A DNA stretch of 55,329 bases from positions 1-55,329 of the IMG/VR virus record IMGVR_UViG_3300012582_000006; one strand, 5' to 3'. This DNA comes from a virus. Positions within the stretch are counted from its first letter, which is position 1; every line of letters begins with the position of its first letter. A program made the position numbers and the translations under genes. The notes under the pieces are model-generated. The model was not told the origin of the DNA. It ran no database searches and saw only the letters and a program-made list of their open reading frames with translations. Below are positions 5,221-26,509 of the stretch, piece after piece.

Positions 5221-5365
5221 TTTGGCTAGGTAAGGCGTGGTTTGGTAAGGTGATGTTAGGTAAGGCGTGGTGTGGTTGTGTAGGGTTAGGTTCGGTAAGG
5301 TAATGCGAGGTGAGGTTGGTTAGGGTGAGGTTGGGTCGGCCGAGGTAATGTTGGGTGTGGTGAGG
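5221..5365 (+). repeat. Degenerate pentanucleotide array A (29 units, YNNKG)
   Basis: From two bases after the clamp stop codon the sequence reads as 29 consecutive 5-base units with no insertion or deletion: TTTGG, CTAGG, TAAGG, CGTGG, TTTGG, TAAGG, TGATG, TTAGG and so on, ending TGTGG, TGAGG. Position 1 is T or C, positions 2-3 vary freely, position 4 is mostly G (sometimes T) and position 5 is almost always G. The last unit TGAGG supplies the ribosome binding site of the gene at 5370. The same element recurs at 14651-14775, 14823-14952 and 17304-17553. Confidence 0.9.
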
Positions 5366-5564: not shown

Positions 5565-5768
5565 ATGAAAGTCAGTGAGTGGCTTAAGCAGTATCAGATG
5601 ACAGGAGAAGTTCCTGAACTTACTGATTCGGAACATGGAGTATTAATGGCTTTCTGGTGTGGATGGCTAATAGGTCCGTCACACTCGCAGATAGCAGTGA
5701 CTATGGATGATCGTAGATCGATGGCTATTAAAGCGGCTGAGTTTATCGAAGAGCGTGCGAGAGGATAA
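5565..5768 (+). CDS. Small protein of unknown function
   Basis: A 67-residue protein (starts MKVSEWLKQYQMTGEV) with amphipathic helices and a Trp-rich centre (FWCGWLIG). It starts at ATG 5565 behind AGGATG, four bases after the preceding stop. The pattern is like small phage-only proteins that ride in replication operons. No family is recognised and no membrane segment is clear. Confidence 0.7.
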   Translation: MKVSEWLKQYQMTGEVPELTDSEHGVLMAFWCGWLIGPSHSQIAVTMDDRRSMAIKAAEFIEERARG

Positions 5769-5770
5769 AA

Positions 5771-5917
5771 ATGAAATGGATATATAGATGGATGCAGTGT
5801 AACTTGTTGGCTGATGGTTGGGATGTCCCTCCAAGTAAGGAGGATGGTTGGGAGTTGCTCTCTTTGAGTGTCTCAACGTATCCGGTGGCTATTTTGTTGT
5901 GGAGGAAGGCTCAATAA
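5771..5917 (+). CDS. Very small Trp-rich protein (48 residues)
   Basis: An open frame of 48 codons starting ATG 5771 (MKWIYRWMQCNLLADGW) and ending TAA 5915-5917, immediately before the ATG of the polymerase gene. GAGGA lies 4-5 bases upstream. The gapless placement between two genes and protein-like composition (five Trp residues) support a real gene. Function unknown; a short hydrophobic end (STYPVAILLW) could touch a membrane. Confidence 0.6.
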   Translation: MKWIYRWMQCNLLADGWDVPPSKEDGWELLSLSVSTYPVAILLWRKAQ

Positions 5918-7819: not shown

Positions 7820-8055
7820 GTGAAAAGCATGTAACGTTCCTCAGGAACGAACCAAAGTCAAAAGTGGAGCTTCTAATTGTGAAAGATGGGTGGTTGCCAC
7901 TGACAGCTAATGGTGAAGATTTGGAGATGGTTCAAGATGCTTACGTTATAAGAGTATGGTCGTTAAGGGCACCATCTGGTGAGGCTCGTGTAAACGAGAT
8001 TAGGTTGAGGGCAAGTGAGATGAGCGTGTTGATGCATTCGGTGGAGGAGAAATGA
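7816..8055 (+). CDS. Small protein of unknown function between polymerase halves
   Basis: A 79-residue protein (starts MSEKHVTFLRNEPKSK). ATG 7816 overlaps the stop of the polymerase N-terminal gene (ATGA) and its own end overlaps the dCTP deaminase start in the same way. It has alternating strands (KVELLIVKDGW, YVIRVWSLR), suggesting a small beta-rich fold. No family is recognised. It lies within the insertion that separates the two polymerase genes. Confidence 0.7.
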   Translation: MSEKHVTFLRNEPKSKVELLIVKDGWLPLTANGEDLEMVQDAYVIRVWSLRAPSGEARVNEIRLRASEMSVLMHSVEEK

Positions 8056-8573
8056 TCCTCAGTGGACGAGACTTGAAATTGTATATCGATATAGGAAAAT
8101 TGGTAATCGATCCGGTAACACCAGAACAGTTCCAGCAGAACGGTATAGATTTGGTTCTTGAAGAAATTTCGTATATGTCTGGGCCCTTTTGGCTTGGATG
8201 TACGAGAGAAGTATTAGAAATGCCAGATGATCTGATGGCCTTTGTGGAACTCAGGAGTTCGTGGGCTAGACAAGGATTCTTTTTGCCACCGACGATTGTG
8301 GATGCAGGATTCAAAGGAAATTTGACTTTGGAAATGCTGGCCTTTATGGAGCATCCAAAGGAAGCGCTTGGAAGACGGTTTGCTCATTTGATCTTTGCCA
8401 AGACGTCTAGTCCATGTGAAAAATATCAAGGTATGTATTCTGGTCAGCGCGGGATTACACCATCAAAACTGAAGTCAGAATCTAAAGGTCACGTCACGCC
8501 TGATGAAATACTAAGATCACACGGTTATGATCCAGATGAGATTAGAAGGTTGAGTAAAGGAGGAGAAGAATGA
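8052..8573 (+). CDS. dcd: dCTP deaminase
   Basis: A 173-residue member of the dCTP deaminase/dUTPase trimer family. Motifs: LRSSWARQGF (residues 67-76), VDAGFKGNLTLEM (83-95) with the catalytic-type Glu94 that distinguishes deaminases from plain dUTPases, RFAHLIF and YSGQRGITPSK with Gln132. It makes dUTP (or dUMP if bifunctional) from dCTP for dTMP synthesis, completed by ThyX at 21182. The UDG domain next door makes tight control of uracil in DNA plausible. ATG 8052 overlaps the preceding stop. Confidence 0.85.
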   Translation: MILSGRDLKLYIDIGKLVIDPVTPEQFQQNGIDLVLEEISYMSGPFWLGCTREVLEMPDDLMAFVELRSSWARQGFFLPPTIVDAGFKGNLTLEMLAFMEHPKEALGRRFAHLIFAKTSSPCEKYQGMYSGQRGITPSKLKSESKGHVTPDEILRSHGYDPDEIRRLSKGGEE

Positions 8574-9067
8574 GTTTCGTGTTGCAAGATTGGTTGGGGG
8601 ACCTTTCATTTATGCAACAGAGTGTGTTGCTGACGGCGATTCGTGGTGCGGATACGTTGCCGAAGAGACACATCAGTAAGTATCTTCTTAGGTGGTATCG
8701 TCGTTGTATTTTGACTTGTGCTTTTGAGAAAGTAGTGCACAAGACTCCGGACGAGCCTTGTACTGGAAATTTTACCGGTTCGGTTCCTATGGGATTGGAA
8801 GATTTGTGGCGGACGTACTTGCAAGACATAGATATGATTCTACATCATTTTCATTTGCACGTGTTGCATGCATCTGAGATACTCGGTTACAAGCATCCTG
8901 ATAGACCGATCAGGGAATGGTGGGCAATGTTTTACCATCAGGCGGTTAAGGATATGCACGTTCGTCCGGAGACAGAAGAAGAAATGGATAAGAGGTTGGG
9001 AGATAGTCGGGATCAATGGATGGAAGCTGGTGGACAGCACGAGGTTTGGCATGAGTCTGGCAAGTAA
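8570..9067 (+). CDS. Conserved-looking phage protein of unknown function
   Basis: A 165-residue protein (starts MSFVLQDWLGDLSFMQQ) containing IRGADTLPKRHISKYLLRWYRRC, typed here only in part, a segment I associate with uncharacterised phage proteins in replication modules. It is helical, rich in His and Trp, with HHFHLHVLHASE in the C-terminal half that could bind metal. GGAGG lies upstream of ATG 8570. It overlaps the polymerase C-terminal gene by 17 bases, so the two are probably translated together. Function unknown. Confidence 0.7.
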   Translation: MSFVLQDWLGDLSFMQQSVLLTAIRGADTLPKRHISKYLLRWYRRCILTCAFEKVVHKTPDEPCTGNFTGSVPMGLEDLWRTYLQDIDMILHHFHLHVLHASEILGYKHPDRPIREWWAMFYHQAVKDMHVRPETEEEMDKRLGDSRDQWMEAGGQHEVWHESGK

Positions 9068-9947
9068 GTACGCGGATCTTGATATCTATTTAGGTGCGGA
9101 CCATTCGCAATTGGAAATCCGCGTTCTTGCTCAGATGTCGAAAGATGTATTGCTGACAGAGTTGCTTCAGACGGGTGAGGATATTCATTCTTCTGTTGGT
9201 TACGAGTTGACGGCAATCCCAATCGAGAAGATAAAGAAAGATAGGGATATAAGGACAGCGATCAAAGGGATTCATTTTGGAATTATCTATGGTCTGACGG
9301 AAGAGACTTTGTATCTCAAGTTGAAAGCGGATGCGGCGGAGCGTGGTGAGCAGTTCAACATGACTCGTGAAGAGTTGGGCAAGATCTATAAGGGCTACTT
9401 TAGAAAGTTCAAGGGCGTGGCGGAGTTCATCGAGAAGCAGCATCAATTTGCCCAAGACAACGCTTATGTAATGAGCTTGTTTGGTTTTAGTAGGGAGATT
9501 GCAATAGCAGGAGATGAGACGAGGTCAACGTTTTGGGCGAATCAGGCTGTGAATACACCAATACAAGCTTCGGCACATCAGTTGATGTTGGTGGCGATGG
9601 CAATTTTGGGTTTGAAACAGAAGACGTATAGCTTGTTGCAACGGCCTTCGATGGAAGTACACGATTCGCTTTACGTGTTTGTGAAGCTGATGAAGTTGGC
9701 GGAAGCCTATAAACAATTCATCCAGCTCATGGAAAAAGAGATTTTGGTATATGTGAAGAAGTGGTGGCCGGAAGTGAACTGGGTGATTCCGTTGAAGGCC
9801 GAGGCGAAAGCTGGGTTGAGATTGGGTGTAATGGTTGAGTATAAAGGCGAGTCTCCGGAAGAGTTCATCGAAATGTGGTGTCAGAAGAATAAGAAGTTCG
9901 AGAAGAAACTGCGAGAGGAAATGAAGAAAGGATTGGCCAATGCGTAG
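9051..9947 (+). CDS. Family A DNA polymerase, palm/fingers half (separate gene)
   Basis: A 298-residue protein that begins just before motif A: GADHSQLEIR at residues 15-24 with catalytic Asp17. Motif B is Arg68, Lys72, Phe76 and Tyr80 in RTAIKGIHFGIIYG. Motif C is MEVHDSLY at 201-208 with catalytic Asp205, where Ser206 replaces the usual Glu, and His18 replaces the usual Tyr of motif A. ATG 9051 follows GAGGT by 6 bases. The upstream partner (5918-7819) supplies proofreading, thumb and NLQNI. No intein or intron ends are visible, so the two chains probably assemble noncovalently. Confidence 0.9.
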   Translation: MSLASKYADLDIYLGADHSQLEIRVLAQMSKDVLLTELLQTGEDIHSSVGYELTAIPIEKIKKDRDIRTAIKGIHFGIIYGLTEETLYLKLKADAAERGEQFNMTREELGKIYKGYFRKFKGVAEFIEKQHQFAQDNAYVMSLFGFSREIAIAGDETRSTFWANQAVNTPIQASAHQLMLVAMAILGLKQKTYSLLQRPSMEVHDSLYVFVKLMKLAEAYKQFIQLMEKEILVYVKKWWPEVNWVIPLKAEAKAGLRLGVMVEYKGESPEEFIEMWCQKNKKFEKKLREEMKKGLANA

Positions 9948-10164
9948 TGAGAAGACGGCTCTTGTGTTGGCTGTAGTGATAACGGTTTTGAGGGGGATGG
10001 TTTGGTTTGTTTTTGCTTTGCTGGTTACTTGGCTTTGTCTTCGAGTGGCAAAGCTGTTGGGACATTGGGAGTATGGGGTGTTGTTGTTTATGGTTGTGGG
10101 GTACTTGGCGAACATTTCGATCAGTCTTTCACAAATACTGCAACGTGTTTCCAGGAAGTACTGA
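9940..10164 (+). CDS. Small membrane protein, two transmembrane segments
   Basis: A 74-residue protein with two hydrophobic stretches, TALVLAVVITVLRGMVWFVF and, after WLCLRVAKLLGHW, GVLLFMVVGYLANISI. ATG 9940 lies inside the last codons of the polymerase gene, with AAAGGA 7 bases upstream. The charge pattern suggests an inner-membrane protein. Nothing marks it as a holin specifically. The function is unknown. Confidence 0.65.
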   Translation: MRSEKTALVLAVVITVLRGMVWFVFALLVTWLCLRVAKLLGHWEYGVLLFMVVGYLANISISLSQILQRVSRKY

Positions 10165-10169
10165 AAGGG

Positions 10170-10180
10170 CTTGTATAATA
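10170..10180 (+). promoter_or_regulatory. Possible promoter -10 (CTTGTATAATA)
   Basis: TATAAT at 10174-10179 lies in the 23-base gap before the gene at 10188. The 11-mer CTTGTATAATA recurs exactly before the homing endonuclease at 25646 (25619-25629). No good -35 hexamer is visible at the right distance at either site. It may be a promoter dependent on a phage-modified polymerase, or a chance match. Confidence 0.35.
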
Positions 10181-10187
10181 ATAGGTC

Positions 10188-10685
10188 ATGACGAGAAAAC
10201 CATTGATCGGCGAAGTAGATCCACAGACGCTTGTAGATCGTCTGGCCTTTTCGCAAGAGGAGACACAGGATGCGGCATTGGAACAAGCGAAGTTGTATAT
10301 GGCTGCGGCGACCTATCGTATCAAGAAGATGCGGCTGAGACAGGAAGCGGAAATGTATGCGGATAATCTTCGGGTTGATTATAGCTTGAAGATGCGGTTT
10401 AAGCACAAAGGTCAAAAGGGAATGACCGAACGGGCAATTCAGGAGCTGGTTGATCGGGTACCTGAGATTCGTCAGGCAACGGCTGACTTGGCAAAGGCGA
10501 AGAGGTTGGAGGAGTGGTCGAAGCTTCTGCTTGATGCTTACGAGCACAGAAGAAGCTCTCTTAAGATTTTGACACAGTTTGCTTTCATGCAAGATGCATT
10601 CAGTGGGCAGTACGAAGTAGACAAGATGAAAAGGCAGAGGGAAAGGTTGAAGAAGGATTTGGGGAAAGAGGAAGAGTATGATTGA
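10188..10685 (+). CDS. Helical protein, possible UvsY-like recombination mediator
   Basis: A 165-residue, almost wholly helical, highly charged protein. The layout resembles T4 UvsY: a first helix rich in Lys/Arg/Glu (KKMRLRQEAEMYADNLRVDY), a short acidic connector, then a long C-terminal helix with aromatic residues (EEWSKLLLDAYEHRRSSL, LTQFAFMQD). UvsY loads recombinase on SSB-coated DNA. A gp32-like SSB and RecA follow within 2 kb, which supports the idea. Sequence identity is too low for certainty by eye; a generic coiled-coil protein is the alternative. Confidence 0.5.
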   Translation: MTRKPLIGEVDPQTLVDRLAFSQEETQDAALEQAKLYMAAATYRIKKMRLRQEAEMYADNLRVDYSLKMRFKHKGQKGMTERAIQELVDRVPEIRQATADLAKAKRLEEWSKLLLDAYEHRRSSLKILTQFAFMQDAFSGQYEVDKMKRQRERLKKDLGKEEEYD

Positions 10686-10869
10686 CGTTCTAAGGATTTT
10701 TGCGGAGGCTTGTGGTCTTGCAATCATTTTGATTTTTTCGATTGTATTCATGGGTAGGAATTTGGTTTGGTCTCTAAAGGAGGTGGTGGATTATTATTTG
10801 TCGAAGAAACGGGAAATGTTGTTAGAGCTGGAAGAAGGGCTTGGGAGTGCCTCAAAGAAGTTGAATTAA
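10678..10869 (+). CDS. Small single-pass membrane protein
   Basis: A 63-residue protein with one hydrophobic segment (ACGLAIILIFSIVFMG) followed by a charged helical tail (YYLSKKREMLLELEEGLG). ATG 10678 overlaps the end of the preceding gene by 8 bases. A 17-base gap with AAAGGA separates it from the SSB gene. Function unknown; small membrane proteins recur at 9940, 13480, 15620 and 20731 in this module. Confidence 0.65.
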   Translation: MIDVLRIFAEACGLAIILIFSIVFMGRNLVWSLKEVVDYYLSKKREMLLELEEGLGSASKKLN

Positions 10870-10886
10870 AAACGAAAGGATAAAGC

Positions 10887-11939
10887 ATGGATAAGAAAGA
10901 ACTTGCTGCACAGAAGTTCAAGGAACGGACCGCTTCGAAACGTTTCAAGTTACCGGAAGGGAATACAACGTTTCGTGTGCTTCCGAACGCGAGGGGCCTT
11001 GACAAAGCGGAGTACATTGAGTACAGGATGCACTCCGGTGTAGGAGCTAGAAAATCCTATCTTCGGTGTGGAAAGAATATCCGCGGTGAGGGCGACTGTT
11101 GGTTGTGCGATACGTTGATTCCAAAGTTGGAGAAGTCGGGGAAGTCTTCACACAAGAGAGCGGCTGAGGAACTGAAAGCGAAAGAGAATTTCGCTGTTCA
11201 GATCATCTACAAGTCGGAAGGGAAGTGGATGGGTCCAACGCTGTGGGAAATGTCACCATCGGTTGCTAACAAGCTTTTGAATGTGATGAGCAGAAGGGAT
11301 GTCAGTCATCCGGAAAAGGGATACAATCTGACGATCTCTCGTCAGGGTACGACGATGACCTCGACGAAGTACGGGGACATTGATCGGGATGACGAAAAAT
11401 CTGAAGTGCCGGAGAAGCTTCTTTCGAAGTTGAAGCCCTTTGGTGAGATCCTTCGGAAGTATGACGAGAAGGTCATGAAGGCTGAGTACTACGGGCACGA
11501 GCAGGACGATGACGAACCGGAGGAGGAAGAAGAGGAGAAGAAGAAACCAAAAGACGAGGAAGAAGAAGAGAAGCCGAAACCAAAGAAACTAAAAAAGCCG
11601 GCTGAAGAAGAGGAGGAGGAAGAAAAAGAAGCCGAAGAGGAGGAGGAAGAAAAGCCAAAGCCGAAGAAGCCGAAGAAGGCGGATGCGGAAGAGGAGGAAG
11701 AGGAGTCTGAGTCTGAAGAGGATATTCCAGATCTGGAAGAAGAGGAAGAAGAGAAACCAAAGAAACCGAAAAAACCAAAGGAAGAAGAGGAGGAAGAAAG
11801 TGAGTCCGAAGAAGAGGAAGAAGAAAAACCCAAAAAACCAAAAAAGCCAGCTGCAGACGAAGAAGAAGAATCTGAAGAGGAAGAAGAGCCCAAGCCCAAA
11901 AAACCAAAGAAACCAAGACACGACGAAGACGACGAATGA
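10887..11939 (+). CDS. gp32-like ssDNA-binding protein with giant charged tail
   Basis: A 350-residue protein. Residues 1-205 look like a T4 gp32-type core: a basic N-terminus (KKELAAQKFKERTASKRFK), an OB-like region, and a Cys-rich zinc segment (RCGKNIRGEGDCWLCDTL). Residues about 207-350 are low complexity: runs of Glu broken by PKKPKK modules, ending RHDEDDE. SSB tails are normally short and acidic and recruit partners; this one is about 140 residues and mixed-charge. It sits between the UvsY-like gene and recA. AAAGGA precedes ATG 10887. Confidence 0.75.
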   Translation: MDKKELAAQKFKERTASKRFKLPEGNTTFRVLPNARGLDKAEYIEYRMHSGVGARKSYLRCGKNIRGEGDCWLCDTLIPKLEKSGKSSHKRAAEELKAKENFAVQIIYKSEGKWMGPTLWEMSPSVANKLLNVMSRRDVSHPEKGYNLTISRQGTTMTSTKYGDIDRDDEKSEVPEKLLSKLKPFGEILRKYDEKVMKAEYYGHEQDDDEPEEEEEEKKKPKDEEEEEKPKPKKLKKPAEEEEEEEKEAEEEEEEKPKPKKPKKADAEEEEEESESEEDIPDLEEEEEEKPKKPKKPKEEEEEESESEEEEEEKPKKPKKPAADEEEESEEEEEPKPKKPKKPRHDEDDE

Positions 11940-12015
11940 TTTAGAAGGTGATAAGGTGATTGTGAACGAGTCTGATTCGGATGACTTGGACGTGGGTCAA
12001 GTTGAAGAGTAAGAG

Positions 12016-12939
12016 ATGAAAACACAGACGACAAAGGTTCGGCCTCTTTCACCGGAGGCCGAACTGACTCTTATCAAAAAGAAATTGAAACATTTTACGA
12101 CGGAGAAGACGGTCAAGTACTGGCTGGATACTGGTAGTCCATTGTTAAATTCCATGTTCGGTTCTGAAGACAAAGGGATTCCGTATGGGAAGATGTTTGA
12201 ACTTTCTGGTTTCGAGTCTCAGGGAAAAACAGCGCTGATGATGAAGTTAGCTGGCATGGCTCAACGCGATGGGGCAAAAATTGGTTGGGTGGATTTGGAA
12301 ATGAGTTGGGATCCTGAATGGGCGAGAGCACTCGGTTTGATTCCAGAAGAGGTTTACCTATTCAAGCCGGAAATAGGAACGTTCGGAAAGGAAACGGAAG
12401 AGCGCCAGCATACAGCGGAGGAGTTGTTGGAAGAAGTTGAGATGTGGATAAAAAGACGTGGTCATGAAAATCCTGATGGTAGGATTTTTTGTTGTATGGA
12501 TTCTATTGCGGCGATGTTGACGGAGGAAGAGGCGGCCGGAGGGATTCAGAATCAAAATATGAGAACGAAAGTATCAACAGCAACATTTCTTTCCCAGCTG
12601 CTGAGGCGTTGGGTGGCAATGGTTGCAAACTACAATGTGATGATGAATTTCATCAATCAGCTTAGGATTGCACCTGGTGCTTGGGGTAATCCTGAATACA
12701 CGCCGGGTGGAAATGCTGTGAGGCTTTATGCATCGGTTCGCGTGCGGATGCGGAGGAAGTCTAAGAAGCTTTTGAAGGGTGGCAAGCCTATCGGTATGAA
12801 GGGTGTGATGTCGAATTGGAAGAACAAGGCGGGAGCTGGTTCTCGTGAAGGGTTGAGTATCGGTTATAAGATTTATTATTCCGGGAAGATAAAGTACGTT
12901 GATGCTGAGGAGGTAAAGCTAGAAGGGACAGAAACATGA
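12016..12939 (+). CDS. recA: RecA-type recombinase
   Basis: A 307-residue strand-exchange ATPase. Walker A is GFESQGKT (residues 65-72), followed by IGWVDLEMSWDPEWA, the Walker B-like FCCMDSIAAM, and the L2/NTPGGN-type region NPEYTPGGNAVRLYASVRV. It is shorter than bacterial RecA (about 350), lacking part of the C-terminal domain, as usual for phage UvsX/RecA proteins. Together with SSB, the UvsY-like protein and SbcDC it would support recombination-dependent replication and break repair. Its end overlaps the next gene as ATGA. Confidence 0.85.
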   Translation: MKTQTTKVRPLSPEAELTLIKKKLKHFTTEKTVKYWLDTGSPLLNSMFGSEDKGIPYGKMFELSGFESQGKTALMMKLAGMAQRDGAKIGWVDLEMSWDPEWARALGLIPEEVYLFKPEIGTFGKETEERQHTAEELLEEVEMWIKRRGHENPDGRIFCCMDSIAAMLTEEEAAGGIQNQNMRTKVSTATFLSQLLRRWVAMVANYNVMMNFINQLRIAPGAWGNPEYTPGGNAVRLYASVRVRMRRKSKKLLKGGKPIGMKGVMSNWKNKAGAGSREGLSIGYKIYYSGKIKYVDAEEVKLEGTET

Positions 12940-13220
12940 GTACTATATACGGCTCGAAGTCTTTGACAGAAGTTTCTCTCAGAAGAAAATTGGATGTGGC
13001 ATTGTCGGATGCACTTTTTGGTTATAACAGTTCAAAGCCGTTTGTTCCTAGAAATGTAATTCGAGGTGTCGCTGGTTGGATTTTTTCACTTCATTTGACG
13101 GCTGCGGAAAAAGAGGTGGCTTCACAAATGACGAAGGGCATTTTGTCGGATTACGAGAGAAGGTTGCGGTTGGTTGGACAAGAGCTTGAACAAGAAGTAT
13201 ACAGAAGGAACGGAGGATAA
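12936..13220 (+). CDS. Small protein of unknown function downstream of recA
   Basis: A 94-residue helical protein (starts MSTIYGSKSLTEVSLRR) with no recognised domain. ATG 12936 overlaps the recA stop. A central helix reads LTAAEKEVASQMTKGIL and the C-terminus is charged. Tight coupling to recA suggests expression at the same level. Function unknown. Confidence 0.7.
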   Translation: MSTIYGSKSLTEVSLRRKLDVALSDALFGYNSSKPFVPRNVIRGVAGWIFSLHLTAAEKEVASQMTKGILSDYERRLRLVGQELEQEVYRRNGG

Positions 13221-13222
13221 AA

Positions 13223-13483
13223 ATGGCAAAGGAACAGAAAGATAAGATACCGGTAGTGGCAGTGACCTCGACAGAGGAGGTAATGCTCGGTCTTTGGCTT
13301 TCGGTTGCGAAGAGAGAGATAGGAATGTCGGAGGCTGCTTTAAAACTTAGGCTTCATGTTGACTCTTTGTCTGAAGAGAAGCAAGACGAGTTTAGGCTCA
13401 AGGCGAGGCCGTGGGGAATGTGGTTGATGTCAATTTCGGAAGCGTTCTTGCAGGAGCTGACTGTAATAGGAGCTAGCAAATGA
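13223..13483 (+). CDS. Small helical protein of unknown function
   Basis: An 86-residue protein (starts MAKEQKDKIPVVAVTS) starting two bases after the preceding stop, behind GGAGGA. It has two helices with aromatic residues (VMLGLWLSVAKRE, WGMWLMSISEAFLQEL). No family recognised. Its end overlaps the following membrane-protein gene. Confidence 0.65.
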   Translation: MAKEQKDKIPVVAVTSTEEVMLGLWLSVAKREIGMSEAALKLRLHVDSLSEEKQDEFRLKARPWGMWLMSISEAFLQELTVIGASK

Positions 13484-13740
13484 CATGGAAAGCGTGGTTG
13501 AAAGCTTTTGGGCTTTTTCTTTTCGTAATTGTGCTGGTATGGGGAGTAGATTTTGCGTTAAGCTTGATGAACAAATCTACCGGTTTGTTGTTGGTAGGTT
13601 TGTTCATTCTGTTTGTTTTGATGTCGTCATGTTTGTTGGTAGGTCAGTTTCTTTATAAGGAATGGCAATCGTTCGACCAGACGGTAAAAGAATTTCTTTG
13701 GCCAGAGCGGTTTAAGAAAGAAAAGAAAAAGGAGGAATGA
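13480..13740 (+). CDS. Small membrane protein, two transmembrane segments
   Basis: An 86-residue protein with two clear hydrophobic helices (FGLFLFVIVLVWGVDFAL and LLLVGLFILFVLMSSCLLVG) and a basic C-terminal tail (FKKEKKKEE), so both ends probably face the cytoplasm. ATG 13480 overlaps the upstream stop. It directly precedes the membrane-anchored SPFH protein and may act with it. Function unknown. Confidence 0.7.
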   Translation: MTWKAWLKAFGLFLFVIVLVWGVDFALSLMNKSTGLLLVGLFILFVLMSSCLLVGQFLYKEWQSFDQTVKEFLWPERFKKEKKKEE

Positions 13741-13744
13741 GACG

Positions 13745-14647
13745 ATGTCGATAGAAGCAAGAGTGACGATGTTGATTGCGTTTGTGGTGTTGTTGCTTGT
13801 GGTGGTATTTGGTGTATTTGGTTGTACAAGAATTGGGGCTGGGCATGTTGGTATAGAGGTGAACCAGGCCGGTTCGCAGCGTGGTGTGCAGGACTTTACG
13901 ATAAGGACCGGATATGTCTTCTACAATCCATTGGCAACGACGATCGTAGAATATCCCACATTTGTACAGACGGCAATCTGGACGGCGAATCCACATGAAG
14001 GACATCCACAGAATGAAGAGATCACGTTTACGACAAAAGATTCAATGGTCGTGTCTGTAGACGTGAATCTCAGCTATTCGTTATTGGCGGAAAAAGTACC
14101 AGCATTCTATGTGAAGTTCAGGTCGGATGATCTGGATATGTTTACGCACGGGTTTTTGAGGAACGTGGCGAGGGATTGTTTCAACGAGGTTGCTGGTAAG
14201 TATGCAGTGGAACAGATTATGGGTGACAACGCTCCGTTTTTGCGTGATGCCAGAAGTTGCTTGCAGAATCAAGTAGCAGACATCGGTGTGCATATAGAAC
14301 AGTTTGGGATCATCGGTGCGCCGAGACCGCCGCAAGGAGTGATTGATTCGATTAACGCGAAAGTACAGGCTGGTCAGATTGCTTTGCAGAAGAGGAACGA
14401 AGTGTTGCAGGCTGAGGCCGAAGCTGCGAAGACCGTTGCTTATGCCGAGGGTGAAGCAAAAGCTATGGTAACGAGGGCAGAAGGTCAGGCGAAATCAAAC
14501 AGACTTATTAGCGAAAGTTTGACGGATAAGGTTCTAGAGAGAACCAGATTGGATTTGCAATGGCATTGGATCGATAAGTGGAACGGACAGAGGCCGAGTG
14601 TTGAGTCAACCGCGGGTGGAGGGATGTTGATTCAGGTTCCAAAGTAA
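13745..14647 (+). CDS. SPFH/band 7 membrane protein
   Basis: A 300-residue protein with an N-terminal membrane anchor (LIAFVVLLLVVVFGVFGC; the Cys could alternatively mark a lipobox) followed by an SPFH domain (GAGHVGIEVNQ, TFTTKDSMVVSVDVNLSY) and an Ala/Glu-rich coiled coil (VLQAEAEAAKTVAYAEGEAK). SPFH proteins (stomatin, HflK/C, prohibitin) form oligomeric cages that organise membranes and control proteases such as FtsH. A phage copy might protect phage proteins or organise replication at the membrane; this is inference. A GG-rich pentamer array begins directly after the stop. Confidence 0.8.
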   Translation: MSIEARVTMLIAFVVLLLVVVFGVFGCTRIGAGHVGIEVNQAGSQRGVQDFTIRTGYVFYNPLATTIVEYPTFVQTAIWTANPHEGHPQNEEITFTTKDSMVVSVDVNLSYSLLAEKVPAFYVKFRSDDLDMFTHGFLRNVARDCFNEVAGKYAVEQIMGDNAPFLRDARSCLQNQVADIGVHIEQFGIIGAPRPPQGVIDSINAKVQAGQIALQKRNEVLQAEAEAAKTVAYAEGEAKAMVTRAEGQAKSNRLISESLTDKVLERTRLDLQWHWIDKWNGQRPSVESTAGGGMLIQVPK

Positions 14648-14650
14648 AGT

Positions 14651-14775
14651 TAAGGTGTGGTTAGGTCGGGTGCGGTTAGGTCCGGTACGGCGAGGTGCGG
14701 TACGGTTTGGTGTGGTACGGTCAGGTCCGGTCAGCTCGGGAGAGGCCAGGTATGGTGAGGTAAGGTTTGGTGTGG
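14651..14775 (+). repeat. Degenerate pentanucleotide array B1 (25 units, YNNKG)
   Basis: Twenty-five consecutive 5-base units without indels: TAAGG, TGTGG, TTAGG, TCGGG, TGCGG, TTAGG, TCCGG, TACGG, CGAGG and onward, ending TAAGG, TTTGG, TGTGG. It starts four bases after the SPFH stop codon. The end runs into GTGTGAGGGAAAAATG, close to the junction that closes array A (TGTGGTGAGGGAAAGTG), but here the start codon leads only to Met-Lys-stop. Confidence 0.9.
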
Positions 14776-14822
14776 TGTGAGGGAAAAATGAAGTGAAGAG
14801 CTTAGCTGAGGAGATGGCATTG
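14776..14822 (+). other. Spacer between arrays B1 and B2 with two start-stop mini-frames
   Basis: Forty-seven bases interrupt the pentamer pattern. Two ribosome-site-plus-start arrangements are visible: GAGGG followed by ATG AAG TGA at 14788-14796, and GAGGAG followed by ATG GCA TTG TGA at 14813-14824. Neither encodes a real protein. They may be relics of a deleted gene, or ribosome stalling or decoy sites. Confidence 0.5.
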
Positions 14823-14952
14823 TGAGGTTTGGTCCGGTGTGGTAATGTTCGGTCAGGTGTTGTAAGGTGCGGCTTGGTAAGGTTTGGTGTGGCGAGGTCG
14901 AGTGTGGTACGGTCAGGTGTTGTCGGGTGTGGTGAGGTTTGGTAGGGTGAGG
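14823..14952 (+). repeat. Degenerate pentanucleotide array B2 (26 units, YNNKG)
   Basis: Exactly 26 units in 130 bases, no indels: TGAGG, TTTGG, TCCGG, TGTGG, TAATG, TTCGG, TCAGG, TGTTG, TAAGG and onward, ending TTTGG, TAGGG, TGAGG. The last unit provides the Shine-Dalgarno for the ATG at 14958. Variable positions 2 and 3 take all four bases. Confidence 0.9.
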
Positions 14953-14957
14953 ATTAA

Positions 14958-15617
14958 ATGAACGAACGGGAACTGATTGATTCGTTCCATCGCTTGTGGT
15001 ATTCAAAGGGACAATTTCAGATGAAAATAGGCGGTGACGATGATTCAGTTCTAGTTCAGTTGGATGCACGCTACTGCGGATTTCTGGTGCAGAAGAATCC
15101 TTTGGACTTGTGGGTCTATCAAGAAATTTTGTGGGATACAAAGCCGGATTTGATAATCGAGATGGGAACGGCTTCAGGTGGTACGACTCTTTTCTTGGCG
15201 AACCAGTTGGATCTGATCGGTAGTGGTGAGATAATCTCGGTCGATATAGACAATCGGTTGGGAATAGTTCCGAGGCATCCGAGAATAACGTATATCGTTG
15301 GCGATACGGAAAATGCCTATTTGCACAACGAGATTTTCAAAGAGTGTCAGAAGCACAGCAGTGGCATGGTGATTCTTGACGACGACCATTCTACCGAGCA
15401 CGTTTTGCTTGAGTTAAAAATGTATAATGAGTTTGTAACACCGGGTCAGTATCTGATCGTGGAAGATACGAATGTGGATTGGCCGCTAGGATATGGCGAT
15501 GGTCCTGGGAAAGCCGTTCACGAGTTTTTGAAAACGCATTCGGAATTCGAAGTTGATAGGAAACGGGAAAAGTTCTTGATGACGTGGAATCCGGGCGGTT
15601 ACTTGAAAAGGAAGTAG
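14958..15617 (+). CDS. CmcI-like SAM-dependent methyltransferase/hydroxylase family protein
   Basis: A 219-residue class I Rossmann protein of the cephalosporin hydroxylase (CmcI)/rhamnosyl O-methyltransferase family. Visible are LVQKNPLDLWVYQEIL, the SAM-binding PDLIIEMGTASGGTTLF, EIISVDID, a VILDDDHS acidic metal-binding segment and QYLIVEDTNVDWPLGYGDGP. Relatives O-methylate sugars, so it may modify the glycans made by the cassette at 42-53 kb, although it lies in the replication region. The ATG at 14958 follows the last TGAGG of array B2. Confidence 0.8.
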   Translation: MNERELIDSFHRLWYSKGQFQMKIGGDDDSVLVQLDARYCGFLVQKNPLDLWVYQEILWDTKPDLIIEMGTASGGTTLFLANQLDLIGSGEIISVDIDNRLGIVPRHPRITYIVGDTENAYLHNEIFKECQKHSSGMVILDDDHSTEHVLLELKMYNEFVTPGQYLIVEDTNVDWPLGYGDGPGKAVHEFLKTHSEFEVDRKREKFLMTWNPGGYLKRK

Positions 15618-15619
15618 GT

Positions 15620-15862
15620 ATGAGCTACTTGATTCCACTTTTGCTGATTGTTGTTGTTGCTAGACTTGGAAGATTTTTTGCTGCGAGGGGTAACGATCAT
15701 TTTTGGAAGTGCTATAACATTGGTTGGATTAGTAGTAGCTGTGGAGTTTTATGTAGTCGGTTGAAGGGACATTGGGGTCCTCATAAAACTTCACCGATGG
15801 GTGCTTTGCAGTGGTATCACGAATGGAAAGGAGATGGGAAGACGGAAGTTCGTTGGGAATAG
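15620..15862 (+). CDS. Small protein with N-terminal membrane segment
   Basis: An 80-residue protein starting ATG 15620 behind AAGGAAGT. Residues 3-16 (YLIPLLLIVVVARL) form a membrane anchor or uncleaved signal. The remainder carries Cys, His and Trp (FWKCYNIGWISSSCGVLC, HWGPHKTSP). No family recognised. It separates the CmcI-like gene from the clamp loader. Confidence 0.65.
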   Translation: MSYLIPLLLIVVVARLGRFFAARGNDHFWKCYNIGWISSSCGVLCSRLKGHWGPHKTSPMGALQWYHEWKGDGKTEVRWE

Positions 15863-15880
15863 TATGAAAGGGATAGCGCG

Positions 15881-16906
15881 ATGCAACGAACGTTGGCTGT
15901 TTCGTTAAGACCTTATCTGCTTAGCCAGCTCATCGGACAGGATCAGCTGGTAGAGACAATTAAGACTCAGTACAAGAACAAACGAGAACCAGCTGCTTGG
16001 TTGTTTGTCGGTTCGACCGGAACTGGTAAGACGACCGTGGCGAGGATAGTGGCACTGAGTTTGCAGTGTAAGCATGGTGAGTTTGGAGAGCCGTGTGATG
16101 CTTGTCGGGTAAAGAGAGACGATTTCGCAATCCACGAAATAAATGCCTCAGAAGTTTCAGGTGTTGCGGACATTCAAAAGATTGCTGCTGGTTCTGTATA
16201 CTTACCAATGCCTCCGTCTCGTAGAAACGTACTTGTGTTGGACGAGGCACAACGACTTTCCAAAGATGCACAGAATCTGTTGCTGAAATATTTGGAAGAT
16301 GCTCCTAAATCAACGGTGTGGATTATTTGTACGACGGAAGAGAACAAGTTGTTGACGACGATCATAAGACGATGCGAACGAGTGTCGTTGAAATTGCTGC
16401 AAGCGGAGGATATAGGACGATTGGTAAAGCGCGCTTTGAAGTTCGTTAGAGAAACAAAGAAAAATGCGGAACCATTGGTGGAGCAGTTGTGGGAAGCTAG
16501 GATTCAATCGTCCGGTATGATTTTGAATGCGGTTGAGAAGTATCTGGCTGGTGAGTCTGCTAAGGAAGCTGTATCGTCAATCGGATTTGGTGCCGACGCA
16601 CTTGCGATCTGTCGTTCGTTGGAGAAGGGGGACTGGGATGTCATACGAGAAGAGACAAAAAAAGCTACAGCTGATGACCTTCGAGGAATTCGTGCTCAGG
16701 TGGCTGGATACTTGCGACGATGTTTGGAACGAGCGATTCCAGGACCCAGGGCGGGAGAGTTCGCGAAAGCGATTGGAAGAATGGCGCAAGTTGATAGCTT
16801 CACGGATGCAACACAAGGACCGGCAACAATTGCCGCTCTCTATGAACTCTGTCAGATTTTTGCAGGGCCGGTAGACGATCTTGACGAGGTTAGACGAGAT
16901 GATTAG
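15881..16906 (+). CDS. Clamp loader ATPase, DNA polymerase III gamma/tau-like
   Basis: A 341-residue AAA+ protein. Walker A GSTGTGKTT (residues 44-52), a zinc module with Cys63, Cys72 and Cys75, Walker B LVLDEAQ (Asp121, Glu122), sensor 1 ICTTEENK, and RRCERV at 163-168 where the canonical SRC arginine-finger motif has Arg for Ser. It loads the sliding clamp, presumably the protein at 4119. A bacterial-type gamma-like loader plus beta-like clamp with a family A polymerase is an unusual mix compared with T4 (gp44/62, gp45). Confidence 0.85.
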   Translation: MQRTLAVSLRPYLLSQLIGQDQLVETIKTQYKNKREPAAWLFVGSTGTGKTTVARIVALSLQCKHGEFGEPCDACRVKRDDFAIHEINASEVSGVADIQKIAAGSVYLPMPPSRRNVLVLDEAQRLSKDAQNLLLKYLEDAPKSTVWIICTTEENKLLTTIIRRCERVSLKLLQAEDIGRLVKRALKFVRETKKNAEPLVEQLWEARIQSSGMILNAVEKYLAGESAKEAVSSIGFGADALAICRSLEKGDWDVIREETKKATADDLRGIRAQVAGYLRRCLERAIPGPRAGEFAKAIGRMAQVDSFTDATQGPATIAALYELCQIFAGPVDDLDEVRRDD

Positions 16907-17321
16907 GATTAGAATGACGGATGCGGAAGGGCACGGTTACTGGTTGTACGATGATGGGCAATTCGTTTTGGCACTGAAAGAAAAGCCGTCGGTAGGTATT
17001 CAGTTCAGAACGATAGCGTGGTTGAAGAAAGGGGTCTTTTCGTTTAGACATTTGTACTGGCACAAAGAACATAAGTGTTGGTATCCGTCCAGGTTTCCGA
17101 TGATGAAGACAAAGTCGTTTGGGATCAAGATCGGCTATGTGCAAGAGATGGTGGATGGAGAAGAGTTCAAAGGTTTTGTGCATCCGAGGGTCTTGACGAA
17201 GCGGAATGTAATTAGACACTCGACGGGATATGAAGTCCAGTTGAAGTTGATGCCGAAGGATTTGAAGAAAACAGAAGAGGCGGCAATTGAGTATTGGCAA
17301 GAGTTTGGTACGGCGAGGTGA
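16899..17321 (+). CDS. Protein of unknown function
   Basis: A 140-residue beta-rich protein (starts MIRIRMTDAEGHGYWLYDDG) with many aromatic and basic residues (HLYWHKEHKCWYPSRFP). ATG 16899 overlaps the clamp loader stop by 8 bases. Its last codons, for FGTAR, already belong to the pentamer array that follows (from 17304), so the repeat has either grown into the gene or the gene end was captured by it. No family recognised. Confidence 0.75.
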   Translation: MIRIRMTDAEGHGYWLYDDGQFVLALKEKPSVGIQFRTIAWLKKGVFSFRHLYWHKEHKCWYPSRFPMMKTKSFGIKIGYVQEMVDGEEFKGFVHPRVLTKRNVIRHSTGYEVQLKLMPKDLKKTEEAAIEYWQEFGTAR

Positions 17322-17553
17322 GGTTAGGTGTGGTGAGGTGCGGTCGGCCGAGGTGTGGTCAGGTGAGCCTAGGTGCGGTTTGGTGTGGTAATGTCAGGCG
17401 TGGTCTGGTGCTGTAAGGTAAGCTCTGGTGAGGTACGGTGATGTAAGGTGCGGTTTGGCGGGGTAAGGTGATGTTAGGTTGGGCCCGGTACGGTGCTGTG
17501 AGGTTAGGTGTGGTATGGTCGGCTATGGCGAGGTAATGTGAGGTGTGGTGAGG
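17304..17553 (+). repeat. Degenerate pentanucleotide array C (50 units, YNNKG)
   Basis: The longest array: 50 units in 250 bases with no indel, starting inside the end of the upstream gene (TTTGG, TACGG, CGAGG, TGAGG containing its TGA stop) and ending TAATG, TGAGG, TGTGG, TGAGG, which contains the GTG start of the SbcDC gene. The final 25 bases differ from the end of array A at only two positions. The array thus bridges the stop of one gene and the start of the next. Confidence 0.9.
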
Positions 17554-20361
17554 ATTCTGATTACAAGTGACTGGCAGACAGATTATGAAAACCTTGAACT
17601 TTGTTCAAAGGCTGCGGAAGAAATTTTGCAGCTGAAGGAAGAGCATAGGTTCGAGGTTCTCATACATGCAGGAGACTTGAAGCGTCAGTACAATCCGATA
17701 GATGTTCGTATCGTAAACTTTTGGTTGAAGATGATTGGAAAGTGTCGGAAGGCTGGATTGGAAGTTTTCGTTAACCTTGGAAATCACGATCGGGTTGGGA
17801 TGCATGTTGATACACAAAATTGGTTGCCGGTGGTCAGAAAAGCCGGTGCGTTCGCTTATGATGAGCCGCAGCTTGTTGTGGGGTCGTTTACCGATCGTGG
17901 TGTCTCGATTCCACCGTTGGCATTTCTTCCCTTTAGAAACAATCCTGTTTTGTTGAAGCGTGAAGCTCATGATCTTGCTAAGAAAGCAAACGAGAACAGC
18001 ATTCTGATTTTCCATTGCGATTTGAAGAATGCTAGGTACAATGTGCTTTCTCGTTCTGCGGTTGATCTATCGGTTGAGGATCTGTATCCGGATAAGTACA
18101 TGTTCTGTGTTGGTGGTCATTTACACTTTCAGCATAAGGTAGCGGATAATATTTGGTATGTTGGTAGTCCATTCGCAATGGATTGGGGAGAAGCAAACCA
18201 GCGGAAGGGTTATTTGTTGATTGATACACTAAAGAAAACGATCAAGAGAATTCGCTCAAAGATTCCAGGATGGTACGATCCAAATTGGCCTGGATTTGAG
18301 GAGTCGAAGCCGGAGAGTTGGAAAGGGGCCAAGGTAAGGATCAAGGTTCCGTGCGATGGAGTTCAGCATGTTAGAGAGCTACTTGAAAAAGCACGGGTGG
18401 AAGCGGCTAAGAAATATGATGGAGCAGAGATTGTTACAGTTCCTGAATTTCGTGAGGCGGAGAGGGCTGAAGGGAAGATTAGATTGGGTCTTCCTGATGA
18501 AAAGAAAATCAGAATCTACGTACAAGAGACACTGCCGGATGAATTGAGAGGTTATGAATCGGCAATCAAGAAATATCTCGTGGAGCAGCTTTCACTTGTC
18601 GGTGGTTTGGAAAGGGAGCATGGGGAGCTAAAGTTTCTAAAGACACGGGCTAGAAACTTTCTTAGCTATGAGAAATTAGACTTTATATTTGAGCCAGGGC
18701 TTTGTGTGATAGCAGGAGAGAATAAAGATTGGAAGGGAAGGAGCAATGGAAGTGGGAAGACATCGGCATTGCAACCGATTGCAGTAACTTTATTTGGACA
18801 GACATTCAAAGGACAGAAGCATGATGGCTGGATGAGACGTGGTACGGATAAGAAGGAAGAGGTCTTTGCAAAAGTTTGGTTTCAGGATTCCCAAGGAAGA
18901 GCCTGTTGGGTCAATAGACCTAGGCAACCAAAAGAATCAAAGCTGAAGCTGGTAGTGGATGGTGATGTGGTAGAAAGCGGAAACAGACCGGAGAGTACGC
19001 AGAAGTTGATCGAGCAGGTAACCGGTTACACTTGGGAGACGCTTGCGAATGCAATCTACATCGATCAGTCGAAATCCCATTTGATGTTGACGGGAACGGA
19101 GTCGGAGCGAAAAGGATTTCTTGCCAAGTTACAAAACTTGGAAAGGTTCGAGCGGGCTGAGAAATCCGTCCGGGACCAAAAGAGCGACTTTGAGCGCCGC
19201 TACGAGTTGAATTCTGACCGTCTACAATCCGTTTTAACGGAGGAAAAGAACCTACTCGACACAATATCCCGTGCGAAGCGGATTTTAGCTCTAAACGCGT
19301 CTGTGTCGGTTTCTTACCGTCGCGTGAAACGACTGTTTTTGTCGAAAAAGGCTGAATTAGAGACTTGGGAAGCAAAAGCCGAGATGAACTTGACGTTACT
19401 TGACAAGGAGCTTGTTGAAATAGAAAAAGTAGACAAAGAAATGACTAAACAGTTGGCTTCAGTGGAAGAGAGATTGGATGTACTTAGGACCAGATTGTCG
19501 AAGTTCAAAAGAATGGAAGGTGTCTGTCCGACCTGCGAGCGTGTGATAGATGAGAAGGCAATTCAGTTGGCGATTCCGGAAATGGAAAAGAAAATACGTG
19601 GACTGGAAAAACAGGTCGAAGGTTTTGGGGGACTGGAATGGCAACGTAAGTCGCAGAGGAGAGGGCTCGAGAACAAAAAGATAAAGTGGCTCAGGAACAA
19701 AAGCTTGGCTGGTGAGGTTTCAGACCTGCAAGTGAGAATGGAAAAACTGAAGTTCGAGTGGCTTCAGTACAAGAGGCAGCAAGAGTTGATTGATGGCTTG
19801 CAGAAGCAGGTGAATCAGTGTAAGGAGCTTGGTAGTGGTTTGACTAGAAAGAAAATCAAGATCGGAAAATGGCTCAAGGTGCTGAAGTACTCTCAATCGG
19901 TATTCCAAAGAAACGGATTGCCTGCATCGTTGAATCAACAGATCTGTCCAGAATTGAATCAGGCGGCGGCGGAGTATGCTGAACTATTTGCTCAGAGAGA
20001 AATTCAGGTTCGGTTTGCTGTGGACGAAGAAGGAAGACTGGATGTGCGGGTGATTAATGCACACGGTGGTGAAGGGGTAGCGGATCAATCGGAAGGTGAA
20101 ATGAAAATGGCTTCGTTGATCACTTCCTTTGCGGTGAGATCGGTGGCACCGAAGACGAACATCCTGATTTTGGATGAGCCGGGTGACGGCTTGGATGCGA
20201 TTTCGGCAAGGAGTTTTGCTAGAGGGTTGAAGCAGGTGACGGATCGGTTCGGAAGTATTTTGTTGACGACTCATAATCCAGCAATCTTATCTGAGCTGGC
20301 GGATGCAAAGTTGGTGGTGGTCAGAAAAGAAAACGGGATAAGCGAGGTGGTCGATGGCTAG
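17548..20361 (+). CDS. Single-chain Mre11-Rad50 (SbcD-SbcC fusion)
   Basis: A 937-residue protein. Residues 1-340 are a calcineurin-type nuclease: TSDWQ (Asp8; Gln10 where His is usual), GDL at 42-44, GNHD at 78-81, a His in IFHCDL and GGHLH at 189-193. Residues 370-937 are an SMC-type ATPase: Walker A SNGSGKT at 399-405, a coiled coil with a zinc hook CPTC at 660-663, the signature region QSEGEMKM, Walker B LILDEP with Asp876/Glu877 and H-loop His909. The complex processes DNA ends and is normally two genes. GTG 17545 is an alternative start; both lie in the last repeat units. Confidence 0.9.
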   Translation: MRILITSDWQTDYENLELCSKAAEEILQLKEEHRFEVLIHAGDLKRQYNPIDVRIVNFWLKMIGKCRKAGLEVFVNLGNHDRVGMHVDTQNWLPVVRKAGAFAYDEPQLVVGSFTDRGVSIPPLAFLPFRNNPVLLKREAHDLAKKANENSILIFHCDLKNARYNVLSRSAVDLSVEDLYPDKYMFCVGGHLHFQHKVADNIWYVGSPFAMDWGEANQRKGYLLIDTLKKTIKRIRSKIPGWYDPNWPGFEESKPESWKGAKVRIKVPCDGVQHVRELLEKARVEAAKKYDGAEIVTVPEFREAERAEGKIRLGLPDEKKIRIYVQETLPDELRGYESAIKKYLVEQLSLVGGLEREHGELKFLKTRARNFLSYEKLDFIFEPGLCVIAGENKDWKGRSNGSGKTSALQPIAVTLFGQTFKGQKHDGWMRRGTDKKEEVFAKVWFQDSQGRACWVNRPRQPKESKLKLVVDGDVVESGNRPESTQKLIEQVTGYTWETLANAIYIDQSKSHLMLTGTESERKGFLAKLQNLERFERAEKSVRDQKSDFERRYELNSDRLQSVLTEEKNLLDTISRAKRILALNASVSVSYRRVKRLFLSKKAELETWEAKAEMNLTLLDKELVEIEKVDKEMTKQLASVEERLDVLRTRLSKFKRMEGVCPTCERVIDEKAIQLAIPEMEKKIRGLEKQVEGFGGLEWQRKSQRRGLENKKIKWLRNKSLAGEVSDLQVRMEKLKFEWLQYKRQQELIDGLQKQVNQCKELGSGLTRKKIKIGKWLKVLKYSQSVFQRNGLPASLNQQICPELNQAAAEYAELFAQREIQVRFAVDEEGRLDVRVINAHGGEGVADQSEGEMKMASLITSFAVRSVAPKTNILILDEPGDGLDAISARSFARGLKQVTDRFGSILLTTHNPAILSELADAKLVVVRKENGISEVVDG

Positions 20362-25618: not shown

Positions 25619-25629
25619 TTGTATAATAT
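25619..25629 (+). promoter_or_regulatory. Possible promoter -10 before homing endonuclease
   Basis: CTTGTATAATA with TATAAT at 25622-25627 lies 18 bases before the start of the homing endonuclease gene and behind a stop codon at 25585-25587. The same 11-mer occurs at 10170-10180. No good -35 is visible. A private promoter would be usual for a self-mobile endonuclease gene. Confidence 0.45.
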
Positions 25630-25645
25630 AACTGGAGGTGGTACA

Positions 25646-26509
25646 ATGAGTAAAGCTCAAAGTGATGCGGCAAGAAAGTCGTGGTCGAACAAGAAAGTTA
25701 GAATTAGACGTATTAAGGCTTTGAGGGAATCGAATTCTAAACCAAGAACAAAAGAACATAGGCGGAAACTTGGTTTGGCTCATAAAGGTCTTAAGCATAA
25801 GCGGTCTACAAAAAGGAGAATGTCAGATTCACATAAGGAACGGTTATCGAATCTCCCGAAAGGTGCTTGCTCGATGTGTGGTTCTTTGAACCATACTTTA
25901 AGACAACACAAAAGACGCGTAGTAGAAGGACGGAGGAAAAGTAAATTATGGAGGAACGCAGTAGCTGAAGGGAATAGAAAGGCTCATTTGGGAAAGAAAG
26001 CTTCTGCAAGTACAAGAAGGAAGATGTCACGAACACAAAAAGTAGCTCAAAATAAGCTAGAGTTGAAACAGTGGCATTCTGAGCATTCGAAAAGAATGTG
26101 GGCAAACAGAACAAAGGCGGAGAAGAAATCAATAGCTGAAAAAAGTTCAAAGACACAGCGCGGCCGAATTCCAAACTTCGATCGGTTTGGTCAGTACTAT
26201 GAAGGGAAGAGTGGAAAGATTTGGATGCGTTCTAGTTACGAAGTGAAATTCGCTGAGTGGTTGGATAAATATGGAATCGGGTGGAAGTTTGAACCACATT
26301 CCTTTTACGTTGGTTTAGGAAATTGGAACGGCTCGGAATATACACCAGATTTCTATTTACCTCGTCACGATTTGTACGTTGAGACGAAAGGTTATCTGCG
26401 CGATGAGAATGTAAGGAAGCTAAAAACGTTTTTCAGACTGTGGCCGGCTATATCAAAGAAATGGTATATGTTGAAGCGAGAAGGTTTGTTGGCACTGGGA
26501 GTTTTGTAA
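25646..26509 (+). CDS. Homing endonuclease, NUMOD3 repeats + PD-(D/E)XK/VSR-like nuclease
   Basis: A 287-residue basic protein. The N-terminal half has NUMOD3-like DNA-binding repeats (TKEHRRKLGLAHKGLKHK, ASTRRKMSRTQK) with a CSMCGSLNH insert. The C-terminal nuclease domain reads MRSSYEVKFAEWL, KFEPHSFYVG, YTPDFYLPRHDLYVETKG, i.e. the E...PD...ExK pattern of Vsr-like nucleases. A paralogue lies at 39080. GGAGG precedes ATG 25646. A/T-richer than its neighbours, as expected of a mobile gene inserted between two structural genes. Confidence 0.85.
   Translation: MSKAQSDAARKSWSNKKVRIRRIKALRESNSKPRTKEHRRKLGLAHKGLKHKRSTKRRMSDSHKERLSNLPKGACSMCGSLNHTLRQHKRRVVEGRRKSKLWRNAVAEGNRKAHLGKKASASTRRKMSRTQKVAQNKLELKQWHSEHSKRMWANRTKAEKKSIAEKSSKTQRGRIPNFDRFGQYYEGKSGKIWMRSSYEVKFAEWLDKYGIGWKFEPHSFYVGLGNWNGSEYTPDFYLPRHDLYVETKGYLRDENVRKLKTFFRLWPAISKKWYMLKREGLLALGVL

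What the first reader, a model, noticed from the sequence alone, without database searches (positions are those of the whole stretch)
17304..17553. Strictly phased degenerate pentanucleotide arrays (YNNKG) joined to translation starts
Arrays at 5221-5365, 14651-14775, 14823-14952 and 17304-17553 hold 29, 25, 26 and 50 five-base units with no insertion or deletion in about 650 bases. Position 1 is T/C, positions 4-5 are K and G, and positions 2-3 vary over all four bases. Ordinary slippage repeats have identical units and indels; here the phase is kept while the bases vary, which implies selection on spacing. Three arrays end in a TGAGG unit that serves as the Shine-Dalgarno of the next gene, and array C contains the upstream stop and the downstream start. 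In RNA the pattern resembles a ladder of UNNGG units every 5 nt; TRAP, which binds NAGNN repeats with a 5-nt period, is a structural analogy only. Two-layer G-quadruplexes (GG, 3-nt loops) or a DNA-bound filament are alternatives.
Basis: partly seen in the sequence, partly recalled or inferred. Interest (0 to 1): 0.85.

Follow-up and report, generated by a model that had tools for sequence, protein, structure and literature searches.

The report
Guide-RNA arrays of phage VIPR type
The strange five-letter repeats in this virus match, letter for letter, the guide RNAs of VIPR, a recently described RNA-guided weapon that phages use against each other; here they are unusually long, scattered between replication genes, and no matching Vipr protein was found in the recovered part of the genome.

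Summary
Four arrays (29, 25, 26 and 50 five-base units; 130 in all) keep a 5-nt phase without an indel: position 1 is Y in 129/130 units, positions 4-5 are almost always GG, positions 2-3 are free. They score 22-39 against at most 5 in shuffles. The motif (YNNGG = GGY/NN) is that of vrRNAs, the guides of VIPR systems (preprint PMC13142463): a RAMP protein (Vipr) binds GGY, and the NN dinucleotides read DNA by a one-base-skip code. My scanner recovers the four published phiSUSP1 vrRNAs, and arrays in other viruses lie beside a protein family homologous to solved SUSP1 Vipr (PDB 36pp, E=1.8e-29). Two syntenic relatives carry arrays at the same junctions, but with different NN and 9-29 units; a third has none; array D is a clean insertion at a junction that lacks an array in three relatives. 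Arrays are therefore hypervariable guide cassettes, not leaders, TRAP sites or slippage repeats. What differs from the published systems: up to 50 uninterrupted units, no 3' tail, arrays scattered through replication operons and ending in the next gene's Shine-Dalgarno, and no Vipr detected in this fragment. No target was found.

The parts
5221..5365 (+). Array A, 29 YNNGG units; starts at the stop of the 370-aa clamp-like gene (TGAGTTTGGC...) and ends TGAGG-GAAAGTG, the SD and start of the 63-aa zinc-ribbon gene
   Evidence: same site occupied in G003 (29 units) and G001 (9 units) with other NN, empty in G002
14651..14775 (+). Array B, 25 units, just after the Band_7/SPFH gene; followed by TGTGAGGGAAAAATG
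14823..14952 (+). Array C, 26 units, just upstream of the CmcI-like gene (ATG 14958); relatives carry arrays of 11 and 15 units in the same interval, before a small gene that precedes CmcI
17304..17553 (+). Array D, 50 units; about 241 bp (17308-17548) inserted between GAGTTTG and the TGARG of the SbcDC start; holds the stop of the 146-aa ORF and the start of SbcDC
   Evidence: empty site in L132 and no array at this junction in L130 and L131
4107..5219 (+). 370-aa protein upstream of array A; sliding-clamp-like by context only (no Pfam, PHROG or NCBIfam match)
14958..15617 (+). CmcI-like methyltransferase gene downstream of array C
   Evidence: PF04989, E 2.9e-44
16881..17321 (+). 146-aa ORF in the position that Vipr holds in distant relative L019 (before the array and SbcC); present in L130 and L132, absent from L131; not detectably a Vipr
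17545..20361 (+). SbcD-SbcC fusion gene downstream of array D (start more likely GTG 17548)

Best explanation
The four arrays are guide cassettes (vrRNA-type RNAs) of the VIPR kind. Each is transcribed with its operon. A Vipr RAMP protein would polymerise on the RNA, one subunit per 5-nt unit, gripping GGY, which is why phase and GGY are kept. The free NN dinucleotides would pair with double-stranded DNA of a competing phage or satellite by the one-base-skip rule and repress it, which is why NN turns over completely between relatives. In this phage group the cassettes are long, have no tail, are inserted at gene junctions of the replication region, and end in a unit (TGAGG) that doubles as the Shine-Dalgarno of the next gene. 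The Vipr protein is expected in the missing part of the genome or supplied in trans. Shown here: the motif, the phase, NN turnover at orthologous sites, an array-free SbcDC junction in three relatives, and the association of such arrays elsewhere with a Vipr family. Inferred from the preprint: binding, the skip code, repression. Not shown: transcription, a cognate Vipr, a target.
For: Exact motif match to published vrRNAs (YNNGG, GGY conserved, NN hypervariable; ours). The same scanner recovers the four published phiSUSP1 vrRNAs, 11, 15, 14 and 10 units, one upstream and three downstream of vipr. About 50 of 120 IMG/VR stretches with (GGTNN)x7 are degenerate arrays; 37 proteins found in them plus SUSP1 Vipr form one HMM family with an A-G-x3-G-x-G-D-x-R-P G-loop. 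Their profile hits PDB 36pp 'SUSP1 Vipr protein' at 1.8e-29. The L019 member folds at pLDDT 91 and matches Cas7/Csm3-type RAMPs of type VII and III CRISPR complexes. L019, a distant relative with the same replication module, has array-Vipr-array-SbcC, with the second array ending GGTAAGAAAAATG right at the SbcC start, as in the window. Relatives G001 and G003 carry arrays at orthologous sites with 67-74% identical flanking proteins but other NN and unit numbers (9, 11, 15, 22, 29). NN order shows no internal duplication. Uninterrupted runs of 31-82 units also occur beside Viprs (L043, L126, L080, L050).
Against: No Vipr in the 55-kb record or in G001-G003: HMM, PHROG_4652 and hhalign are negative while controls score 98-99.8%. 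All of these are linear records, probably fragments. No target: own genome at shuffle level; IMG/VR and GTDB seed scans gave only hits that do not extend. Units per array (25-50) exceed the published 9-16. No conserved 3' tail, and cutting out a guide would cut the message of the next gene.
Confidence: 0.82

Rival explanations
1. Orphan decoys: YNNGG arrays without a Vipr gene soak up the Vipr of a competing phage or prophage, as RNA-based anti-CRISPRs (Racrs) sequester Cas proteins.
For: No Vipr found in four records of the clade; arrays much longer than one guide; Racr precedent for repeats without a protein gene (PMC10651486).
Against: Distant relative L019 with the same architecture has its own Vipr. 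The records are fragments. A decoy needs no wholesale NN replacement, although drift at free positions could also give it.
Confidence: 0.1
2. Translation or regulatory leader: the array is an RNA platform in front of genes, bound by a TRAP-like ring, or a string of Shine-Dalgarno-like sites.
For: All four arrays lie within 15 nt of the next start, and the last unit is a Shine-Dalgarno.
Against: Orthologous genes work without arrays in G002, and the SbcDC junction has none in L130, L131 and L132. In other viruses most arrays are not at gene starts. The TRAP motif NAGNN is not met.
Confidence: 0.05
3. Two-layer G-quadruplex or G-rich DNA element (replication, recombination).
For: GG every 5 nt on one strand, beside replication and recombination genes.
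Against: Strict 5-nt phase over 650 nt and Y in 129/130 units are not needed for quadruplexes; the association with a RAMP family is unexplained.
Confidence: 0.02
4. Neutral degenerate microsatellite that grew by slippage.
For: Simple GGTNN microsatellites also occur in IMG/VR.
Against: No indels; NN order free of duplication; substitutions confined mostly to NN; array D gained as a block at one junction.
Confidence: 0.01

Closest known systems
VIPR vrRNAs of Escherichia phage phiSUSP1 and the P. fulva prophage (type II; PMC13142463)
   Same: YNNGG tandem units, GGY conserved, NN hypervariable, phage-encoded, strand of the neighbouring genes
   Different: SUSP1: 10-15 units by my scan, 3' tail with a predicted pseudoknot, cassettes flanking vipr and vap. 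Here: 25-50 uninterrupted units, no tail, scattered over 12 kb, fused to the next gene's Shine-Dalgarno, no vipr in the record
VIPR locus in IMG/VR contig of L019 (G004)
   Same: Replication module (clamp loader, RecA, SbcC), arrays directly in front of gene starts, A-rich end before ATG
   Different: 10 and 12 units; vipr (186-aa frame) lies between the two arrays, where the window has an unrelated 146-aa ORF
VIPR staggered or overlapping arrays (PMC13142463, fig. S18, not readable here)
   Same: Arrays that hold more than one guide's worth of units
   Different: Cannot be compared: the supplement is not available; whether the 50-unit run is staggered guides is a guess
RNA-based anti-CRISPRs (Racr, PMC10651486)
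   Same: Phage-encoded repeat RNA without the cognate protein gene in cis
   Different: CRISPR repeats and Cas6/Cas7 instead of YNNGG units and Vipr; sequestration not shown here
TRAP-binding leaders (NAGNN x11)
   Same: 5-nt period read by a protein oligomer
   Different: Fixed triplet is GGY rather than (G/U)AG; no ring-like fixed unit number

Membership tests
VIPR guide RNA (vrRNA) | Tandem YNNGG units: GGY conserved, NN hypervariable, constant phase | tested here: met
   (130 units), relatives; published definition
VIPR guide RNA (vrRNA) | 9-16 units per vrRNA (stated for the characterised systems) | tested here: inconclusive
   Window 25-50; relatives 9, 11, 15, 22, 29. Runs of 31-82 units also lie beside Viprs in other loci; whether long runs are cut into 9-16-unit guides is unknown
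VIPR guide RNA of type II (SUSP1-like) | Invariant structured 3' tail | tested here: not met
   Only TGAGG plus an A-rich stretch and a start codon are shared, so not type II; the preprint says architectures vary between types
VIPR system | vipr gene (ancestral RAMP) with the arrays | tested here: inconclusive
   Not found in G000-G003 with three methods and positive controls, but all records are linear and probably fragments; distant relative L019 has it
VIPR system | vap accessory gene | not tested
   vap families of the other types are not described in readable text
VIPR system | NN pairs with DNA by the one-base-skip rule; targets are competing elements | tested here: inconclusive
   No target in own genome, held loci, IMG/VR or GTDB seeds; sense codon-likeness of NN is positive in all nine arrays but confounded by base composition
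VIPR system | RNA transcribed and co-purifies with Vipr | not testable with these tools
   needs an experiment
CRISPR array | Identical repeats alternating with spacers | tested here: not met
TRAP leader | (G/U)AG triplets every 4-5 nt | tested here: not met
   A precedes GG in only 58 of 130 units
Rfam RNA families | Match to any of 4227 curated models | tested here: not met
   none in window, L019, L020, L130, L132, L133, L136

The most novel reading that the evidence does not exclude
This phage group carries VIPR guide arrays without its own Vipr: long, tail-less, ribosome-site-fused arrays that either program a Vipr supplied by the host, a prophage or a co-infecting phage, or jam it as an RNA decoy (an anti-VIPR). 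A related reading is that the 50-unit array D is one continuous guide that reads about 150 bp of a target gene.
Probability: 0.22. Interest if true: 0.82.

Novelty: new variant of a known kind. Interest (0 to 1): 0.62.

Why it matters
VIPR is a months-old, CRISPR-ancestral class of RNA-guided systems. This locus shows, independently of the preprint, that its guides exist as long cassettes inserted at gene junctions and turned over completely between related phages, so the guide pool behaves like movable, quickly replaced ammunition that shares the ribosome-binding site of replication genes. How 25-50-unit runs are processed and who provides the Vipr are directly testable. The 37 array-associated proteins and the empty-site comparison give material for both.

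Tried and rejected
Slippage or microsatellite origin: rejected by the NN shuffle test. TRAP: no fixed A. Rfam: no match. Self-targeting: best matches at shuffle level. Target search: exact 12-unit and 10-unit patterns gave nothing (the first included the head unit TT, which may not be part of the guide); 8-unit seeds and one 10-unit GTDB seed gave 7 hits, none extending beyond the seed; decoded peptides gave no PHROG or tblastn match of note; local skip-rule test over 1.3 Mb no different from shuffles. The 146-aa ORF as a divergent Vipr: hhalign probability 0.2%, no PDB relative, AlphaFold pLDDT 39 (uninformative). No near relative in INPHARED.

Full report
Observation. Position 1 is a pyrimidine in 129/130 units, position 4 is G (116) or T (13), position 5 is G in 123. 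The dinucleotide at positions 2-3 is free, except that GG is nearly avoided (1 of 130). Nothing like it occurs elsewhere in the window or on the minus strand, and dinucleotide shuffles do not come near (5 at most against 22-39).

Wider occurrence. Of 120 stretches, roughly half are plain microsatellites, but about 50 carry degenerate arrays like ours over a G+C range of 0.29-0.73. Many come as blocks of 7-20 units with a repeated end (GGCAG, GGCTA, GGAATGGTTT), for example L020, L023, L127. Of 211 such arrays only 44 end within 15 nt of an ORF start and 120 have none within 60 nt, so the link to translation starts is not general.

Identification. A literature search found PMC13142463 (read): VIPR systems, in which a RAMP protein (Vipr) binds vrRNAs made of 9-16 YNNGG repeats, and the NN dinucleotides recognise double-stranded DNA with a one-base skip; natural targets are satellites and prophages. 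As a positive control the scanner finds the four vrRNAs of phiSUSP1 (11, 15, 14, 10 units). From proteins beside the collected arrays an HMM was built that includes SUSP1 Vipr and 37 relatives with an invariant G-loop. The profile of 18 of them finds the solved SUSP1 Vipr (PDB 36pp) at 1.8e-29; the L019 protein alone finds it at 1.4e-12. The L019 model (pLDDT 91) matches Cas7-like subunits of type VII and III CRISPR complexes. SUSP1 and L019 Vipr belong to PHROG 4652, unknown function.

Relatives of this virus. Three IMG/VR contigs are syntenic: G001 (L130, L136), G002 (L131, L135), G003 (L132-L134), with SbcDC 58-68% identical. G003 has arrays of 15, 29 and 22 units and G001 of 11 and 9; G002 has none. 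At the junction after the clamp-like gene the window, G003 and G001 all carry arrays (29, 29, 9 units) although the flanking protein is 72-74% identical and the NN content is unrelated. Most arrays of the clade open with AGTTTGG at the upstream stop and end near an A-rich stretch and the next start codon. At the SbcDC junction the window has array D, whereas L132 reads GAGAGTTTGTGAAGGTTCTAGTCACA, with stop and start overlapping; against it the window carries about 241 bp inserted between GAGTTTG and TGARG. L130 and L131 also lack an array there. Arrays are thus gained and replaced as cassettes; their NN order shows no internal duplication, which argues against growth by slippage.

Mechanism. 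The best-supported reading is that these are VIPR-type guide cassettes. GGY and phase are kept because Vipr subunits grip each unit; NN is free because it stores the target. That L019, a distant relative with the same replication module (26-29% identical clamp loader and RecA), has array, Vipr, array, SbcC in a row, with the second array ending at the SbcC start, ties the window's architecture to a VIPR locus. These arrangements are shown by sequence; RNA production, Vipr binding, skip-rule pairing and repression are inferred from the preprint.

What does not fit. No Vipr was found in the window or in G001-G003 by HMM, PHROG 4652 or profile-profile comparison, while left-out true members score 98-99.8%. 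The records are linear, and the window starts inside an exonuclease gene. G003 has a 1742-aa ORF that looks like a tail tape measure (my reading; no PHROG match) with no counterpart in the window, so much of the genome is probably missing and the gene could lie there. The 146-aa ORF that takes Vipr's place before array D is not recognisably a Vipr. Arrays of 25-50 units are longer than the published 9-16; runs of 31-82 units also exist beside Viprs (L043, L050, L080, L126), so they may be several or staggered guides. No target was found, which says little, because the host and its other phages are unknown and environmental viruses are thinly sampled.

Novelty. The kind is known since April 2026. 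Scattered, tail-less, long arrays fused to Shine-Dalgarno sites and lacking vipr in cis are a variant I did not find in the readable part of the preprint; its supplement could not be read. The orphan or decoy reading (compare Racrs, PMC10651486) is open.

Noticed in passing
window 1508-2533 and 2833-3495: A queuine tRNA-ribosyltransferase-like protein (PHROG 887, possibly a DpdA-type DNA modifier) and a GTP cyclohydrolase I (FolE) suggest 7-deazaguanine modification of the phage DNA.
   Followed up: partly
L043:1845-2134 and 2895-3304; L080; L126: Very long uninterrupted or nearly uninterrupted YNNGG runs (58, 82, 42, 40 units) next to a Vipr gene.
   Followed up: partly
L012 (G006, 105 kb), L031 (G007, 67 kb), L111 (G008, 43 kb): Other large viral contigs with degenerate YNNGG arrays near clamp loader, RecA or SbcC genes and no detectable Vipr; the arrays of G006 and G007 lie near contig ends.
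   Followed up: partly
arrays A-D (window 5221-17553): In this clade NN1 is G-rich (39%) and NN2 A-rich (44%), and all nine arrays look more like codon positions 1-2 of sense coding DNA than of antisense; the NN pair GG is avoided.
   Followed up: partly
window 33057-35087 and 35744-35811: 676-aa protein with imperfect repeats around 'D-x-L-S-F-S-D-S' and a perfect 33-bp tandem repeat in the next gene.
   Followed up: no
window 10887-11939: Single-strand DNA-binding protein with a very long Glu/Lys/Pro-rich C-terminal tail of low complexity.
   Followed up: no
window 25619-26509, 36944-37450, 39080-39838: Endonuclease-like genes (homing-type by my reading) with similar genes in G003.
   Followed up: no
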